Under the pieces are notes generated by a model, which made no database searches, was not told where the DNA came from, and worked only from the letters and a program-made list of their open reading frames with translations. DNA of 64,000 nt from Clostridia bacterium (GTDB lineage Bacteria; Bacillota; Clostridia; Oscillospirales; Acutalibacteraceae). A program made the translations under genes and the position numbers. The DNA lies in assembly GCA_017623615.1 (NCBI GenBank), contig JAGAOT010000024.1:33644-97643 (forward strand), read 5' to 3'. Of the stretch, positions 39,293-64,000 are shown in pieces (the first letter of the stretch is position 1; each line of letters starts with the position of its first letter).

Positions 39293-39315
39293 CGTTGGTT
39301 CCTCCATGGAAAATA

Positions 39316-39507
39316 AGCCCCGCCAAGCCGTATGCAGCCGATTGTAACCTGCTCTTTCAGCAGGTGGGTGCCGCCCGATGCTTTCACGCTCCCTTCGTCC
39401 GCTCAAAAACCGAGCGGGAGGTCTGCAATCCGCCACCGGAGCAAGGCTCCCTATTAATGTGTGTTGGGTTACATATAGACTGCAATGTTTCGCACAAGGC
39501 AGGGTGT
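39316..39507 (-). ncRNA. ssrS: 6S RNA
   Basis: About 190-nt RNA that binds RNA polymerase holoenzyme as an open-promoter mimic. The ends pair as a closing stem, CCCTGCC with GGCGGGG, and the interior contains the long irregular rod with a large central bubble expected of 6S. Inner features are the GGGAGCC/GGCTCCC-type arm around TTGCTCC, the CCGCTC…GAGCGG hairpin and the CCTGCT…AGCAGG hairpin. Boundaries are approximate. The identification is from remembered resemblance to clostridial 6S sequences and from the structure; a covariance search would settle it. Confidence 0.75.
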
Positions 39508-39568
39508 GTATTAAATGATATTCACCTGCGGCGAGTTATCGGTTATATTTTTATTGAATAACTTTAAA

Positions 39569-59166: not shown

Positions 59167-60330
59167 TTAAAGAGTTGTGAGGGTTTCCATAACATAGTTG
59201 CCGAAATCCTCGCAGGTTGCGCCGTCTGCGCGTCCTGTAATCTTGAGCTTCTTTTCCTCATACATGCAGATATCAAGAGCTCTTTCAAGCTTGTCAGCCT
59301 CTTCCTGCTTGCCGATATGTGAAAGGAGCATAACTGCAGCGCGAAGCATTGAGCAGGGGTCTGCATACTGTCCGCGACCCTCTCTCATCATTCTGGGTGC
59401 AGAGCCGTGGATAGCCTCAAACATTGCATATTTCTTGCCGATGTTTGCGCTGCCTGCCGTGCCTACGCCGCCCTGGAATTCAGCAGCTTCGTCGGTGATG
59501 ATGTCGCCGTAAAGGTTGGGAAGAACAAAAACCTTAAAGTCTGTCCTTCTCTTCTTGTCAATAAGCTTTGCGGTTGTAATGTCGATATACCATTCGTCGG
59601 TTGTGATTTCGGGATAATCCTTGCCAATCTCTTTGCAGAGGTTGAGGAATTTGCCGTCTGTTGTCTTGATAACATTGGCTTTCTGAATGATGGAAACTCT
59701 GTCCTTCTTATTTCTTCTCGCATAGTCATATGCAAGCTTTGCAATTCTCTTTGTGCCCTCTGTGGTGGTAACAACAAAATCCATTGCAAGGTCATCTGTA
59801 ACGTTAATGCCCTTTGAGCCGACTGCATATGCACCCTCGGTGTTTTCGCGGAAGAATGTCCAGTCAATGCCTTCTTCGGGAACTTTAACGGGGCGAAGGT
59901 TTGCAAAAAGGTCAAGTGCTTTTCGCATTGCAACGTTTGCGCTTTCGATGTTGGGCCACGGGTCGCCCGCCTGGGGAGTTGTTGTGGGTCCTTTAAGAAT
60001 AACGGGGCATTTCTTGAGTTCTTCAAGAACATCGTCGGGGATTGCCTTGTTAACGGCAACACGGTTTTCAATCGTCAATCCGTCAATGGTCTTGAATTCA
60101 ATCTTGCCTGCATCAACATCTTCTTTAAGAAGAAATTCAAGAACTCTTGCCGCCTCGTTTGTGATGATGGGGCCGATGCCGTCGCCGCCGCAAACGCCTA
60201 TTGTGAGCTTGTCAAGCTTTGAATAATCAACAAAATCGCCCTGCTGCTTAATGGCTTCGCTTCTTGCGTCCTGCTCTCTGATAAGTGCTTCAAATTTTTC
60301 AACAGCAGCCTTAATCTGTACTTCAGTCAT
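59167..60330 (-). CDS. Isocitrate/isopropylmalate dehydrogenase family protein (probable isocitrate dehydrogenase)
   Basis: Beta-decarboxylating dehydrogenase (387 aa). GVCGGDGIGPIIT, FANLRPVKV, FRENTEGAYAVG, VLPNLYGDIITD and FEAIHGSAPRM are family hallmarks. The Ser at the substrate loop is in a position seen in NAD-dependent isocitrate dehydrogenases; the aconitase immediately upstream makes isocitrate the most likely substrate rather than isopropylmalate. The N-terminus (about 40 residues) is longer than in LeuB. Confidence 0.85.
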   Translation of the reverse strand: MTEVQIKAAVEKFEALIREQDARSEAIKQQGDFVDYSKLDKLTIGVCGGDGIGPIITNEAARVLEFLLKEDVDAGKIEFKTIDGLTIENRVAVNKAIPDDVLEELKKCPVILKGPTTTPQAGDPWPNIESANVAMRKALDLFANLRPVKVPEEGIDWTFFRENTEGAYAVGSKGINVTDDLAMDFVVTTTEGTKRIAKLAYDYARRNKKDRVSIIQKANVIKTTDGKFLNLCKEIGKDYPEITTDEWYIDITTAKLIDKKRRTDFKVFVLPNLYGDIITDEAAEFQGGVGTAGSANIGKKYAMFEAIHGSAPRMMREGRGQYADPCSMLRAAVMLLSHIGKQEEADKLERALDICMYEEKKLKITGRADGATCEDFGNYVMETLTTL

Positions 60331-60354
60331 GTTAGTTTCTCCTTGTTATCAAGT

Positions 60355-60379
60355 GTAGGGCGGGGGCTTGCTCCCGCCG
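60355..60379 (+). repeat. GTAG-headed hairpin repeat, copy 3
   Basis: GTAGGGCGGGGGCTTGCTCCCGCCG: a 9-bp stem with one G·T, in the gap between aconitase and isocitrate dehydrogenase genes. Confidence 0.6.
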
Positions 60380-60383
60380 TAAA

Positions 60384-62318
60384 TTATTTACCGATATTTT
60401 TAGTGTAGTTCAACAGTCCGCCGTCAAGAATCATTGCGGTCTGTCTGTCGGAATAATCATAGTTAAGCTCGTATTTTTCACCCTTTGTGAGGTTTTCAAG
60501 AACAACCTTTGCGCCGTTCTTGATGTTTTCTCTGATGCCGTTCAATGCGAGCATATCGTCTGTGTCAATCTTGTCATAGTCGTCGGGATTTGCGAATGTG
60601 AAAGGCATAATGCCTGCGTTTATAAGGTTAGCGCAATGGATTCTTGCAAATGATTTTGCGATAACCGCCTTGATGCCGAGATAAAGAGGAACAAGTGCGG
60701 CATGCTCTCTCGATGAGCCCTGACCGTAGTTTGCGCCGCCGATAATGAAGCCCTTTCCTGCCGCTTTGCAGCGCTCTGCAAAGTGTTCGTCACACTGTTT
60801 GAAGCAGAAGTTTGAAAGGAACGGAATGTTTGAACGGTAGGGGAGAATCTTTGCGCCTGCAGGCATGATGTGGTCGGTTGTGATGTTGTCGCCGACCTTG
60901 AGAATTGCGGGTGCTTCGATATCTTCAGGCAACTCAACACTTGTGGGGAACGGCTTTATGTTGGGTCCGTATTTAATTTCAACGCTGTCAGCTTCTTCAA
61001 CAGAAGCGGGAAGCTCAATCATGTTATCGTTGATAATGAATCTTTCGGGCATTGTGATTTCGGGCATCTCGCCGAGTGTTCTCGGGTCTGTGAGATAGCC
61101 CGTGATTGCGGAAGCTGCCGCAACCTCGGGGCTGACAAGGTAAATGCCCGCATCTGCAGTACCTGAACGTCCCTCAAAGTTTCTGTTGAATGTACGCAGC
61201 GAAACGCCCTTTGACTGCGGTGACTGACCCATGCCGATGCAGGGGCCGCAGGAGCATTCAAGAAGCCTTGCGCCGGCGCAGAGAATATCGGAAAGAGCGC
61301 CGTTGAGTGAAAGCATGTTAAGAACCTGCATTGAGCCCGGAGATATTGTGAGGCTTACGTTGGGGGCAACCTTTTTACCCTTAAGTATAGCCGCAACCTT
61401 TAAAAGGTCAAGCAAGGATGAGTTTGTGCATGAACCGATGCAAACCTGGCTGATTTCAATGTTGCCAATCTCTTCAACGGTTTTAACGTTGTCGGGCATG
61501 TGGGGCATTGCCGCCATCGGAGCAAGCTTGCAAAGGTCAATATCGATAATTTCGTCATACTGTGCATCTGCATCCGGCAGAAGCTCTGACCAGTCATCCT
61601 CTCTTCCCTGCGCTTTGAGGAATGCCTTGGTTATTTCGTCGGAGGGGAAAACAGAGGTTGTTGCGCCAAGCTCTGCGCCCATGTTGGTGATTGTTGCTCT
61701 TTCGGGAACGGAAAGAGTCTTAACGCCCTCGCCGCCGTATTCAATAATCTTGCCAACGCCGCCCTTAACGCTCATAATGCGGAGCACTTCAAGGATAATA
61801 TCCTTTGCGCCAACCCAGGGAGAAAGTTTGCCCGAAAGGCGCACAAGTGTCATCTTGGGCATGGTTGTGTAGTATGTGCCGCCGCCCATCGCAACCGCAA
61901 CGTCAAGACCGCCCGCACCGATTGCAAGCATGCCTATGCCGCCGCCCGTGGGAGTGTGGCTGTCAGAACCGATGAGCGTTTTGCCGGGCTTGTCGAAGCG
62001 TTCAAGATGAAGCTGGTGGCAGATGCCGTTGCCGGGCTTCGAGAAAAGAAGACCTCTTTTCTTTGCAACGCTCTGAATAAATCTGTGGTCATCTGCGTTT
62101 TCAAAACCGTTTTGCAGAGTGTTGTGGTCGATATATGAAACAGAAAGCTCCGTGCGTACTCTCTCAACGCCCATTGCCTCAAATTCAAGATATGCCATTG
62201 TGCCCGTTGCATCTTGTGTGAGTGTCTGGTCAATTTTAAGACCGATTTCGGTGCCGGGCACCATTTCGCCGCTGACAAGATGGCTCTTAATCAGCTTTTG
62301 ACCTATAGTAAGTCCCAT
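60384..62318 (-). CDS. acnA: Aconitate hydratase
   Basis: Iron-sulfur hydratase converting citrate to isocitrate (644 aa). Cluster cysteines lie in GSCTNSS and CSCGPCIGMG; GSDSHTPTGGGIGML and the C-terminal swivel domain with GGANYGQGSSREHAAL are present. It resembles the compact aconitase form rather than the 900-aa AcnA. Start at an ATG 6 nt after AGGAGG; a Met two codons upstream touches the SD. Co-transcribed with the downstream isocitrate dehydrogenase. Confidence 0.93.
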   Translation of the reverse strand: MGLTIGQKLIKSHLVSGEMVPGTEIGLKIDQTLTQDATGTMAYLEFEAMGVERVRTELSVSYIDHNTLQNGFENADDHRFIQSVAKKRGLLFSKPGNGICHQLHLERFDKPGKTLIGSDSHTPTGGGIGMLAIGAGGLDVAVAMGGGTYYTTMPKMTLVRLSGKLSPWVGAKDIILEVLRIMSVKGGVGKIIEYGGEGVKTLSVPERATITNMGAELGATTSVFPSDEITKAFLKAQGREDDWSELLPDADAQYDEIIDIDLCKLAPMAAMPHMPDNVKTVEEIGNIEISQVCIGSCTNSSLLDLLKVAAILKGKKVAPNVSLTISPGSMQVLNMLSLNGALSDILCAGARLLECSCGPCIGMGQSPQSKGVSLRTFNRNFEGRSGTADAGIYLVSPEVAAASAITGYLTDPRTLGEMPEITMPERFIINDNMIELPASVEEADSVEIKYGPNIKPFPTSVELPEDIEAPAILKVGDNITTDHIMPAGAKILPYRSNIPFLSNFCFKQCDEHFAERCKAAGKGFIIGGANYGQGSSREHAALVPLYLGIKAVIAKSFARIHCANLINAGIMPFTFANPDDYDKIDTDDMLALNGIRENIKNGAKVVLENLTKGEKYELNYDYSDRQTAMILDGGLLNYTKNIGK

Positions 62319-62448
62319 ATACATCCTCCTGTGCGATAAAATCGATGATATTCAATTATATTGCAATTCGGTGTCGGAAGTCAAGGGTAAAAACGACATA
62401 ATATAATGTTTTTTATGTATAAATATTGGTTTTATATACAACATTGTA

Positions 62449-62477
62449 TTTACAAATTTTAAAATCTGTAGTATAAT
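62449..62477 (+). promoter_or_regulatory. Promoter of the attenuator-controlled methyltransferase
   Basis: TTTACA, 17-bp spacer, TATAAT, about 30 bp before a leader-peptide ATG. Confidence 0.8.
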
Positions 62478-62508
62478 CAGTTAAATTCTTGAATCGGAGG
62501 AAATCGGT

Positions 62509-62544
62509 ATGTTCTTTATCTCTGTTCGACGCAGACGAATATAG
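62509..62544 (+). CDS. Candidate leader peptide
   Basis: ATG 8 nt after GGAGG, encoding MFFISVRRRRI and then TAG. The run of arginines matches the positively charged Arg/Lys-x-Arg/Lys stalling motif known for macrolide-induced ribosome arrest. It precedes paired segments, a terminator and a methyltransferase gene. Confidence 0.6.
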   Translation: MFFISVRRRRI

Positions 62545-62621
62545 CTTGTATCTTGTATTGGGTACAGGCTCGAAATGCTGTGTGCCTGACAGAGTGACAG
62601 AGAAAAGTTTACCTTTTGTAT

Positions 62622-62662
62622 TACTGTTAACGGCATATAGCTGTTAACAGTATTTTTATTTT
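62622..62662 (+). terminator. Leader terminator (attenuator)
   Basis: A 10-bp perfect stem TACTGTTAAC/GTTAACAGTA followed by TTTTTATTTT, between the leader peptide and the methyltransferase. The leader's TCTCTGT can pair with ACAGAGA before the terminator, and CAGGC with GCCTG, giving candidate alternative structures. Confidence 0.8.
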
Positions 62663-62676
62663 GGAGGTTATATAAA

Positions 62677-63423
62677 ATGAGCAACAATAAATTTTTGTCA
62701 TTAAATAAAGCTGTTTTTGAACAAATAAAATTACCCGATAATGCAATAGTTGCGGACTTAGGCTGCCGCGATGCGGGTTTTCTTGTAGGATTACAACAAG
62801 CATTTCCTTATAAAATACATCAAGCTATAGGTGTTGATATTACCGATAAATGGTTTAACGATGTGAAATACCAAAGCCCCATTAAACTCAAAACAATGGA
62901 TTGCTCAAAGAAACTTGAGTTTGAGGACAATACATTTGATTTTATATTCTCTGCCGATATGTTTGAATGTGTGTCAAATAAAGATTTATTGGTAAGTGAA
63001 ATCCACAGGATTTTAAAACCGGGCGGAGTGATAATTTGCGTAAACTGTGATTGGGATAGCGTTGTATATAATGGCGGAAATAAAGAATTGATTTCAAAAG
63101 AAATTCATGCATATGCCGTAACAAAACAGCCTTGGATGGATGACATTGACAGTTGGATTGGCAGAAGGATGTACGGGATTTTCAACAAGAGCAAATTATT
63201 CGAAAGTTCTGTATCTGTCCATAACGTTGTTGAAACAGAATATAAAGAAGGCACTTTCGGTTATGATTTAAGTTTAGATATAGCTTGGCTGTATAAAGAA
63301 AATACAGGAGCATTAACCAAGGAAGAATATGATGGTTTTATTGACAATCTGAAATCAGCACAGCAAGACGGAAGTTATATCTTCTCAAAACCGTATTACA
63401 TTTATAAAGGCATAAAATTATAA
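62677..63423 (+). CDS. Class I SAM-dependent methyltransferase (substrate unknown)
   Basis: A 248-aa methyltransferase: motif I VADLGCRDAGF, an acidic VDI end of strand 2, FDFIFSADMFECV, and the HRILKPGGVIICVN loop typical of UbiE/COQ5-like enzymes. The gene is visibly more AT-rich in its third codon positions than its neighbours, suggesting transfer. TTGGAGG SD and ATG directly after an attenuator. The regulation suggests antibiotic-induced rRNA or other protective methylation, but the substrate cannot be read from the protein. Confidence 0.8.
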   Translation: MSNNKFLSLNKAVFEQIKLPDNAIVADLGCRDAGFLVGLQQAFPYKIHQAIGVDITDKWFNDVKYQSPIKLKTMDCSKKLEFEDNTFDFIFSADMFECVSNKDLLVSEIHRILKPGGVIICVNCDWDSVVYNGGNKELISKEIHAYAVTKQPWMDDIDSWIGRRMYGIFNKSKLFESSVSVHNVVETEYKEGTFGYDLSLDIAWLYKENTGALTKEEYDGFIDNLKSAQQDGSYIFSKPYYIYKGIKL

Positions 63424-63634: not shown

Positions 63635-63800
63635 AAAAACAAACCAACCCCAACCCAAACTAAACTAACCAAACCCAAAAGAAAACGAATTAATATAAAA
63701 CCCCATCCACCCCAAAAACAAACAAAAATGATAAAAGAAACAGAAAAACCAAAAGAAAATCCTGAAAACCCGCAAAAAACCCAAGAAAAAGAGATGAAAA
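63635..63800. other. A/C-rich, G- and T-depleted tract without genes
   Basis: A roughly 165-bp run of A and C on the plus strand (repeated CAAACC, CCCAAA, AAAACC words) with unusually few G and T. It sits between the decayed repeats and the rRNA-type promoter. No convincing coding frame; the long minus-strand open frame here arises from the skewed composition. Confidence 0.6.
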
Positions 63801-63923: not shown

Positions 63924-63952
63924 TTGACAAAAGGGTTGGGATTTGGTAATAT
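63924..63952 (+). promoter_or_regulatory. Strong promoter, probably of a ribosomal RNA operon
   Basis: TTGACA, 17-bp spacer, TAATAT. Confidence 0.75.
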
Positions 63953-64000
63953 AGTCGAGCACTCCGCAAGAGAGCGGAGCGCGACGCACCTTGAAAATTA
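63953..64000 (+). ncRNA. Start of probable rRNA operon leader (cut by window edge)
   Basis: A CTCCGC/GCGGAG hairpin followed by GCACCTTGAAAATTA at the window edge. The CCTTGAAAA string closely resembles the sequence just before 16S rRNA in many Firmicutes. The 16S gene itself is outside the window. Confidence 0.6.

What the first reader, a model, noticed from the sequence alone, without database searches (positions are those of the whole stretch)
62449..63423. Attenuator with an arginine-rich leader peptide controlling a methyltransferase
A near-consensus promoter, an SD-led peptide (MFFISVRRRRI), possible alternative pairings (TCTCTGT/ACAGAGA; CAGGC/GCCTG), a 10-bp terminator, then an SD and a methyltransferase in AT-richer DNA. 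This is the layout of ribosome-arrest attenuators for antibiotic-resistance genes. The RRR run fits the Arg/Lys-x-Arg/Lys rule for macrolide-dependent stalling. The methyltransferase is not a recognisable Erm and may be a new inducible resistance or stress enzyme.
Basis: partly seen in the sequence, partly recalled or inferred. Interest (0 to 1): 0.72.

Follow-up and report, generated by a model that had tools for sequence, protein, structure and literature searches.

The report
Arginine-sensing switch before likely resistance genes
A short arginine-rich peptide gene in Clostridia appears to switch on the gene behind it when the cell runs short of charged arginine tRNA, and because the same switch sits before a methyltransferase, a spare arginine-tRNA enzyme and an acetyltransferase, it may reveal an inducible defence against an unknown inhibitor of arginine-tRNA charging.

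Summary
In detail: a promoter, an SD-led leader ORF (62509-62544, MFFISVRRRRI), a 13-bp terminator and a class I methyltransferase. I found 36 distinct leaders of this kind in Clostridia, before the same methyltransferase (32), an arginyl-tRNA synthetase (3) or a GNAT acetyltransferase (1). Rfam has no match. In equilibrium fold models a ribosome at the first Arg codon raises the antiterminator to a mean of 0.44 (28 of 36 leaders respond); no ribosome, or one at the stop codon, gives 0.00. The first Arg codon is kept in 36/36 (CGA, AGA or CGG); later ones vary. Macrolide arrest is not supported: +X+ is absent from 2/36, its arrest site falls where the model gives 0.01, and the switch controls synthetases. 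Best reading: a ribosome-mediated transcription attenuator sensing arginyl-tRNA shortage. The leader-bearing synthetases form a clade about 30% identical to other ArgRS, so inducible resistance to an ArgRS inhibitor is plausible but inferred. The methyltransferase's substrate is unknown; its model resembles small-molecule methyltransferases. Nothing was tested by experiment.

The parts
62449..62477 (+). sigma-70 type promoter TTTACA-17-TATAAT
   Evidence: a promoter in this position in 34 of 36 leaders
62496..62500 (+). Shine-Dalgarno GGAGG of the leader ORF
   Evidence: read in the sequence
62509..62544 (+). leader ORF MFFISVRRRRI, TAG stop
   Evidence: relatives in 35 further loci
62527..62538 (+). 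Arg box CGA CGC AGA CGA (segment 0); bases 62529-62534 can pair with 62578-62583
   Evidence: first codon Arg in 36/36; 0:3 helix 91.2% of cells paired, but no two-sided change
62543..62552 (+). segment 1, 5' arm of the 1:2 hairpin; overlaps the stop codon
   Evidence: 1:2 helix 98.6% of cells paired, 3 pairs changed on both sides
62561..62570 (+). segment 2; pairs with segment 1, or with segment 3 as anti-antiterminator (12-pair hairpin 62558-62589 with one bulge)
62577..62586 (+). segment 3, GCTGTGTGCC, antiterminator strand
   Evidence: 3:4 duplex of 9-11 bp in 36/36; 95.3% of cells paired against 22-55% when slid
62632..62641 (+). segment 4, GGCATATAGC, end of the terminator's 5' arm plus loop and first bases of the 3' arm; partner of segment 3
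62622..62662 (+). intrinsic terminator (arms 62622-62634 and 62640-62652) and T tract
   Evidence: 96.5% of cells paired with covariation
62663..62667 (+). Shine-Dalgarno GGAGG of the methyltransferase
   Evidence: read in the sequence
62677..63423 (+). class I SAM-dependent methyltransferase, 248 aa
   Evidence: Pfam Methyltransf_11; model pLDDT 85 and Foldseek matches

Best explanation
A ribosome-mediated transcription attenuator that senses shortage of arginyl-tRNA. With no ribosome on the leader, segment 3 is held by the Arg box and the terminator forms. When arginyl-tRNA is plentiful the ribosome runs to the stop codon, covers segment 1 and frees segment 2, which captures segment 3, so the terminator forms. 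When arginyl-tRNA is short the ribosome waits at the first or second Arg codon: the Arg box is covered, segments 1 and 2 can pair with each other, and segment 3 is free to pair with segment 4 in the terminator, so RNA polymerase reads on into the gene. Shown by sequence comparison: the parts, the alternative helices, and the switch's use before three gene families. Shown only in an equilibrium fold model: the effect of ribosome position. Inferred: that arginyl-tRNA is the signal, and, less securely (about 0.45), that the genes behind the switch defend against an agent blocking arginine-tRNA charging, through a replacement synthetase, acetylation (GNAT) or methylation (this gene).
For: 36 distinct leaders share the architecture. 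Arg-box codon 1 is Arg in 36/36 although the codon changes (CGA 33, AGA 2, CGG 1); codons 2-4 are Arg in 32, 32 and 33 of 36. The 3:4 antiterminator is 9-11 bp in 36/36, with 19 different versions of segment 4; on A8 its covariation score and share of paired cells were reached by 0/500 shuffles. Terminator and 1:2 hairpin covary. With ribosome masks the mean antiterminator probability is 0.00 free, 0.44 at the first Arg, 0.00 at stop; terminator 0.96, 0.53, 0.94; 28 of 36 leaders rise by more than 0.02, 19 reach 0.3. Stall scan: 0.44 and 0.42 at the first two Arg-box codons, then 0.01 and 0.00; flat for mask ends +10 to +16 nt, falling at +17 to +18. The leader precedes argS in 3 loci: in G321 and G435 it is a second copy beside another argS without it; G1007 is the third. 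The three leader-bearing ArgRS form one clade (FastTree support 1.0), 30-32% identical to the nearest ArgRS outside their clade, and one of them sits in the window's family, whose other sampled ArgRS fall elsewhere in the tree. RimL/MccE-type GNATs are reported to inactivate a broad range of aminoacyl adenylates (PMC3817062, passages).
Against: No experiment. In the fold model 8 of 36 leaders do not respond to a stall at the first Arg (0.015 or less: L035, L071, L237, L238, L239, L249, L251, L252), among them 2 of the 3 argS leaders. The model is equilibrium only; in the partial transcript ending at segment 4, 3:4 already forms without a ribosome (mean 0.67) and with one at the stop codon (0.79), against 0.98 when stalled, so kinetics matter. 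In the stalled state 2:3 still competes (0.42 against 0.56 for 1:2). Stalls one or two codons before the first Arg give 0.40 and 0.34, so the position is sharp on the 3' side only. For 3:4 only 1 pair has changes on both sides, no more than shuffles give (1.1), and the smaller 14-leader set gave no support above shuffles at the usual level. Two of 36 leaders have only one Arg codon (L250, L252), though L252 precedes an ArgRS. Part of the Arg codons' conservation is explained by RNA pairing of the Arg box. G1007 has only the leader-bearing argS, in an 87% complete MAG, so there it may be the sole copy. A second divergent ArgRS copy without the leader exists (L107). I recall no natural ArgRS inhibitor, and the listings showed none.
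Confidence: 0.72

Rival explanations
1. Drug-dependent ribosome arrest (macrolide or other tunnel binder) at the Arg-rich peptide induces a resistance methyltransferase, as at erm genes; the first reader's view.
For: 34 of 36 peptides contain R/K-x-R/K; peptide length and the position of the first Arg (codon 7 in 32 of 36) resemble short erm leaders (recalled); the genes look like resistance genes; stalls just before the first Arg also antiterminate in the model.
Against: Same leader before ArgRS genes; +X+ missing in 2 of 36 while the first Arg stays; arrest with the third Arg-box codon in the A site gives a modelled antitermination of 0.01; the methyltransferase matches small-molecule methyltransferases best, and none of the 50 Foldseek rows shown (of 1872 matches) is named an rRNA methyltransferase.
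Confidence: 0.13
2. Arginine-nutrition attenuator without any resistance role: low arginyl-tRNA raises a synthetase, and the methyltransferase and acetyltransferase serve arginine metabolism or the starvation response.
For: Synthetase genes are classical targets of such control; an extra argS under a T-box is reported for B. cereus (PMC2494555, passage); His-codon leaders before hisS paralogues are reported in bacilli (PMC2965389, passages). In G1007 the leader-bearing argS is the only one found.
Against: The leader-bearing ArgRS is a divergent clade, a second copy in 2 of 3 genomes; the gene directly behind each of the 36 leaders is never one of arginine synthesis or transport; the methyltransferase is patchy (6 of 60 relatives including the window) and its neighbours mostly differ (by eye).
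Confidence: 0.3
3. The signal is damage to tRNA-Arg (a tRNase toxin such as a colicin-D-like protein) rather than blocked charging.
For: Would also stall ribosomes at Arg codons (recalled); the methyltransferase could in principle protect or repair tRNA.
Against: A replacement ArgRS or a GNAT would not obviously help; Pfam shows only methyltransferase domains, no RNA-binding one.
Confidence: 0.1

Closest known systems
Amino-acid leader-peptide attenuators (trp, his type; recalled), including the His-codon leaders before hisS/hisZ paralogues in bacilli (PMC2965389, passages seen)
   Same: Short ORF with codons of the sensed amino acid, mutually exclusive hairpins, intrinsic terminator; also used for an extra synthetase copy in Firmicutes
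   Different: Codons are Arg; a separate anti-antiterminator (2:3) and an antiterminator that takes the terminator's loop and the bases beside it; the switch is shared with a methyltransferase and a GNAT gene
Ribosome-arrest attenuators of antibiotic resistance genes (ermC/ermD type; recalled)
   Same: Short peptide, +X+ motif in 34 of 36 leaders, resistance-like downstream gene
   Different: Downstream genes include ArgRS; the first Arg codon, not +X+, is the constant; modelled switch position fits hungry-codon stalling
T-box control of an extra argS copy (B. cereus, PMC2494555, passage seen)
   Same: tRNA-charging sensor before an additional argS
   Different: No Rfam match at all, T-box included, in 62400-62720 at E<=1; here a translated leader would do the sensing
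Microcin C resistance (MccE/RimL acetylation; PMC3817062, passages seen)
   Same: A Rim-type GNAT as defence against an aminoacyl-adenylate mimic that blocks a synthetase; logic parallel to the GNAT behind one leader
   Different: Target there is AspRS; no attenuator known to me; the GNAT here matches RimL only weakly (22.4 bits, cut-off 184)
Arginine-responsive leader of Salmonella speF (PMC6386406, listing and start of abstract only; its Arg-codon ORF is recalled)
   Same: Leader RNA whose conformations respond to arginine
   Different: Controls polyamine synthesis; no sequence relation was tested

Membership tests
Leader-peptide transcription attenuator | Short ORF with SD, conserved in relatives | tested here: met
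   36 leaders with peptides of 10-13 residues; translation itself not shown
Leader-peptide transcription attenuator | Conserved intrinsic terminator before the gene | tested here: met
Leader-peptide transcription attenuator | Mutually exclusive antiterminator | tested here: met
   3:4 in 36/36, slid controls 22-55%; two-sided changes no more than shuffles
Leader-peptide transcription attenuator | Run of codons for the sensed amino acid, kept despite synonymous change | tested here: met
   first codon Arg in 36/36, three different codons; two leaders have only one Arg
Leader-peptide transcription attenuator | Stalling position decides termination | tested here: inconclusive
   fold model only: mean 0.44 at the first Arg against 0.00 free and at stop, but 8 of 36 leaders do not respond
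Leader-peptide transcription attenuator | Induction by starvation for that amino acid | not testable with these tools
   needs a reporter or RNA-seq
Macrolide-dependent arrest attenuator | R/K-x-R/K in the leader peptide | tested here: inconclusive
   34 of 36 have it, the window's own included; L250 and L252 do not
Macrolide-dependent arrest attenuator | Downstream gene is an erm, ABC-F or macrolide efflux or inactivation gene | tested here: not met
   methyltransferase, ArgRS or GNAT; a macrolide-inactivating role of the methyltransferase is not excluded
Macrolide-dependent arrest attenuator | Induction by macrolides | not testable with these tools
   needs experiment
T-box riboswitch | Match to the Rfam T-box model | tested here: not met
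   no Rfam match at E<=1 in 62400-62720
Erm 23S rRNA methyltransferase | Erm/KsgA family profile | tested here: not met
   10 Pfam rows and 25 of 31 NCBIfam rows shown, none of Erm or RrnaAD

The most novel reading that the evidence does not exclude
A portable arginyl-tRNA-charging attenuator forms, with interchangeable cargo (replacement ArgRS, GNAT acetyltransferase, SAM methyltransferase), an inducible resistance system of gut Clostridia against an undescribed natural inhibitor of arginyl-tRNA synthetase; the methyltransferase inactivates that inhibitor.
Probability: 0.38. Interest if true: 0.85.

Novelty: new variant of a known kind. Interest (0 to 1): 0.63.

Why it matters
An Arg-codon leader before argS, and one attenuator shared by synthetase, methyltransferase and acetyltransferase genes, did not appear in the literature listings I looked at (open-licence PMC papers, at most 20 rows shown per search, so this is no proof of absence). 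If the reading holds, the leader is a genomic signpost: genes behind it would be candidates for defence against inhibitors of arginine-tRNA charging, which would imply that such compounds exist where these bacteria live. It also shows how a run of Arg codons can be mistaken for a macrolide arrest motif.

Tried and rejected
Macrolide +X+ arrest: see rivals. Rfam: no family at E<=1. Plasmids and phages: no DNA match to the leader; no methyltransferase relative in plasmids at 1e-10 or among the 32 pattern matches in viral contigs. The same pattern over 391 genomes of the class found only the window's own. Model R2 over 371 genomes of the class found the window and L254; L254 and L253 look to me like hairpins without a leader ORF in the sequence shown, and both were dropped before the count of 36. 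L242 lies whole inside L034 and was dropped; L002, L003, L004 and L005 are the same loci as L029, L030, L031 and L033. An alignment of 14 leaders gave no covariation of 3:4 above shuffles at the usual level (51/500); 36 leaders did better. In A8 the short row L252 is poorly aligned in the terminator, so its cells are unreliable; one search treats it separately. Of 40 argS loci searched with R3, 3 have the leader (L105, L106, L258). Weak further hits: L083 (E 0.033, downstream of the gene), L073 (0.67, other strand), L258 (0.011, other strand of its own leader) and L105 (0.033, same strand, upstream of its leader; not followed up). R1 found none in the 30 argS loci L072-L101 at E<=1. A search for short Arg-run ORFs upstream of those 30 gave only scattered chance-like ORFs. 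Whether the methyltransferase acts on RNA is not settled by fold. I first took the G1007 argS for a second copy; one search found no other in that MAG.

Arithmetic of the 36: 32 methyltransferase (window, L006, L029-L037, L068, L230-L241, L243-L249, L251), 3 argS (L070, L071, L252), 1 GNAT (L250). L234's gene is cut by the contig end.

Full report
What is there. The end of the window (also the end of contig C4 of a 64% complete MAG) carries a promoter at 62449-62477, a leader ORF at 62509-62544 coding for MFFISVRRRRI, a 13-bp terminator at 62622-62652 and a 248-aa methyltransferase at 62677-63423. The leader RNA folds better than shuffled sequence (-59 kcal/mol, z -4.9). No Rfam family matches it.

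Relatives. Protein searches found nine loci at 55-92% identity in Clostridia MAGs, six of them by title from goat, sheep or deer gut; 6 of 60 relatives including the window have a full-length match. Their upstream regions carry the same leader (mean column identity 82% over 11 leaders). A Paenibacillus protein at 30% identity shows no leader in the 211 bases held upstream. Covariance models of the leader found it in 7 of 45 genomes of the genus, 3 of 394 of the order including the window, 2 of 63 of the second family, 11 of 200 and 26 of 398 of the window's family (one of the 26, L253, judged false), and 2 of 371 of the class (one is the window, the other, L254, judged false). These searches scored only a few candidates per genome, so weak leaders may be missed. 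After removing duplicates and the two false hits there are 36 distinct leaders.

What it controls. Thirty-two precede the methyltransferase. Three precede an arginyl-tRNA synthetase (L070, L071, L252; Pfam tRNA-synt_1d), and one a GNAT acetyltransferase (L250; Acetyltransf_3, 2e-30). In G321 and G435 the leader-bearing argS is a second copy and the other copy has no leader. In G1007 it is the only argS found, in an MAG rated 87% complete. In a tree of 40 ArgRS the three leader-bearing proteins form a clade (support 1.0), joined by a leaderless second copy (L107, 1.0); they are 30-32% identical to the nearest ArgRS outside this clade and lie apart from the other sampled ArgRS of the window's family. 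So the G1007 enzyme looks foreign to its family, and a housekeeping gene may lie in the missing part of that MAG (inference).

The switch. Segment 3 (GCUGUGUGCC, 62577-62586) can pair with the Arg box (0:3), with segment 2 (2:3; in the window a 12-pair hairpin with one bulge, -12.7 kcal/mol) or with segment 4 (GGCAUAUAGC, 62632-62641) inside the terminator (3:4). The 3:4 duplex has 9-11 bp in 36/36 leaders, although segment 4 occurs in 19 versions. On A8 it has 95.3% of cells paired against 22-55% when slid; its paired share and covariation score are above all 500 shuffles, but only one pair has changes on both sides (5 cells), which shuffles match for pairs (1.1) and rarely for cells (19/500). 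The terminator stem (25 cells changed on both sides against 5.9) and the 1:2 hairpin covary more plainly, the 0:3 helix has no two-sided change. The outer helix between early leader codons and the stretch after segment 3 also covaries, on an alignment fitted to the model and on a free one.

Ribosome position. I removed the bases a ribosome would cover (up to 13 nt from the first base of the A-site codon) and computed pair probabilities for each of the 36 leaders. Mean antiterminator probability was 0.00 with no ribosome, 0.44 at the first Arg codon and 0.00 at the stop codon; terminator 0.96, 0.53 and 0.94. Twenty-eight of 36 leaders rise by more than 0.02 and 19 reach 0.3; 8 stay at 0.015 or less, among them the argS leaders L071 and L252, while argS leader L070 gives 0.96 and GNAT leader L250 0.99. 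Codon by codon the effect peaks at the first and second Arg-box codons (0.44, 0.42) and is 0.01 or less from the third to the sixth; stalls before the first Arg give 0.40, 0.34, 0.22, 0.11 and 0.14 at one to five codons. Base by base it is flat for edges +10 to +16 and falls at +17 to +18, so the 3' limit does not hang on the exact footprint. In the stop state 2:3 holds 0.95 of segment 2; in the stalled state 1:2 holds 0.56 and 2:3 0.42; in the free state 1:2 holds 0.90 and 0:3 0.56. In a transcript that ends at segment 4, 3:4 forms in all three states (0.67 free, 0.98 stalled, 0.79 stop). This is equilibrium folding, not kinetics.

Why arginine. Arg-box codon 1 is Arg in 36/36 and uses CGA (33), AGA (2) and CGG (1); codons 2-4 are Arg in 32, 32 and 33. 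The presence of argS behind the same switch is the strongest single argument. The +X+ macrolide motif is present in 34 of 36 but missing from L250 and L252. As I recall the erm work, arrest occurs with the last residue of +X+ in the A site, here the third Arg-box codon, where the model gives 0.01.

What the genes may do. The methyltransferase model (pLDDT 85) matches an uncharacterised Methanosarcina enzyme, a RiPP methyltransferase, phosphoethanolamine and natural-product methyltransferases best (50 rows of 1872 shown); these are mostly small-molecule types, although the common fold alone proves little. In the 11 methyltransferase loci whose neighbours I listed, the flanking genes mostly differ by eye; L030 and L034 share three genes downstream, and L032 seems to have part of that set upstream (no family search of the neighbours). 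MccE/RimL acetyltransferases are reported to inactivate a broad range of aminoacyl adenylates (PMC3817062, passages); the GNAT here scores far below cut-off against its best NCBIfam rows (TlmB 22.8 of 625 bits, L7/L12 acetyltransferase 22.4 of 184). A divergent extra ArgRS, a GNAT and a methyltransferase behind one apparent Arg-tRNA sensor suggest three ways to meet one threat, an ArgRS inhibitor. This step is inference; the nutrition rival remains open.

Literature. I saw passages of PMC3817062, PMC2494555 and PMC2965389 and only listings of the rest. PMC2965389 reports His-codon leader peptides before hisS paralogues in bacilli, and PMC2494555 an extra argS under a T-box, so amino-acid leaders and tRNA sensors before extra synthetase copies in Firmicutes are precedented. 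I saw no report of this leader in the listings.

Noticed in passing
window 39313-39508 (-): 6S RNA, the only Rfam match of the window at gathering score (53.7 bits).
   Followed up: no
window 63924-64000 (+): TTGACA-17-TAATAT promoter at the contig end; perhaps the start of an rRNA operon at which the MAG assembly broke (guess from the sequence, not tested).
   Followed up: no
L031 about 1290-1365, L033 about 868-945, L241 after the terminator: An inserted element of roughly 70 bases with inverted repeats sits between the terminator and the SD of the methyltransferase in three loci; not seen in the other leaders printed.
   Followed up: no
L107 (G231): A second, divergent ArgRS gene of the same clade as the leader-bearing ones, without the leader.
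   Followed up: partly
L030 3840-6518, L034 2082-4685: The methyltransferase is followed by the same three genes in these two loci; the second looks like a phosphotransferase-type kinase (by eye). L032 seems to have part of the set upstream.
   Followed up: no
window 59167-62324 (-): ORFs that look like isocitrate dehydrogenase (59167-60330) and aconitase (60384-62324) on the other strand beside the leader (by eye, no family search).
   Followed up: no
window 63640-63800: Strand-asymmetric A/C-rich stretch between the methyltransferase and the contig end.
   Followed up: no
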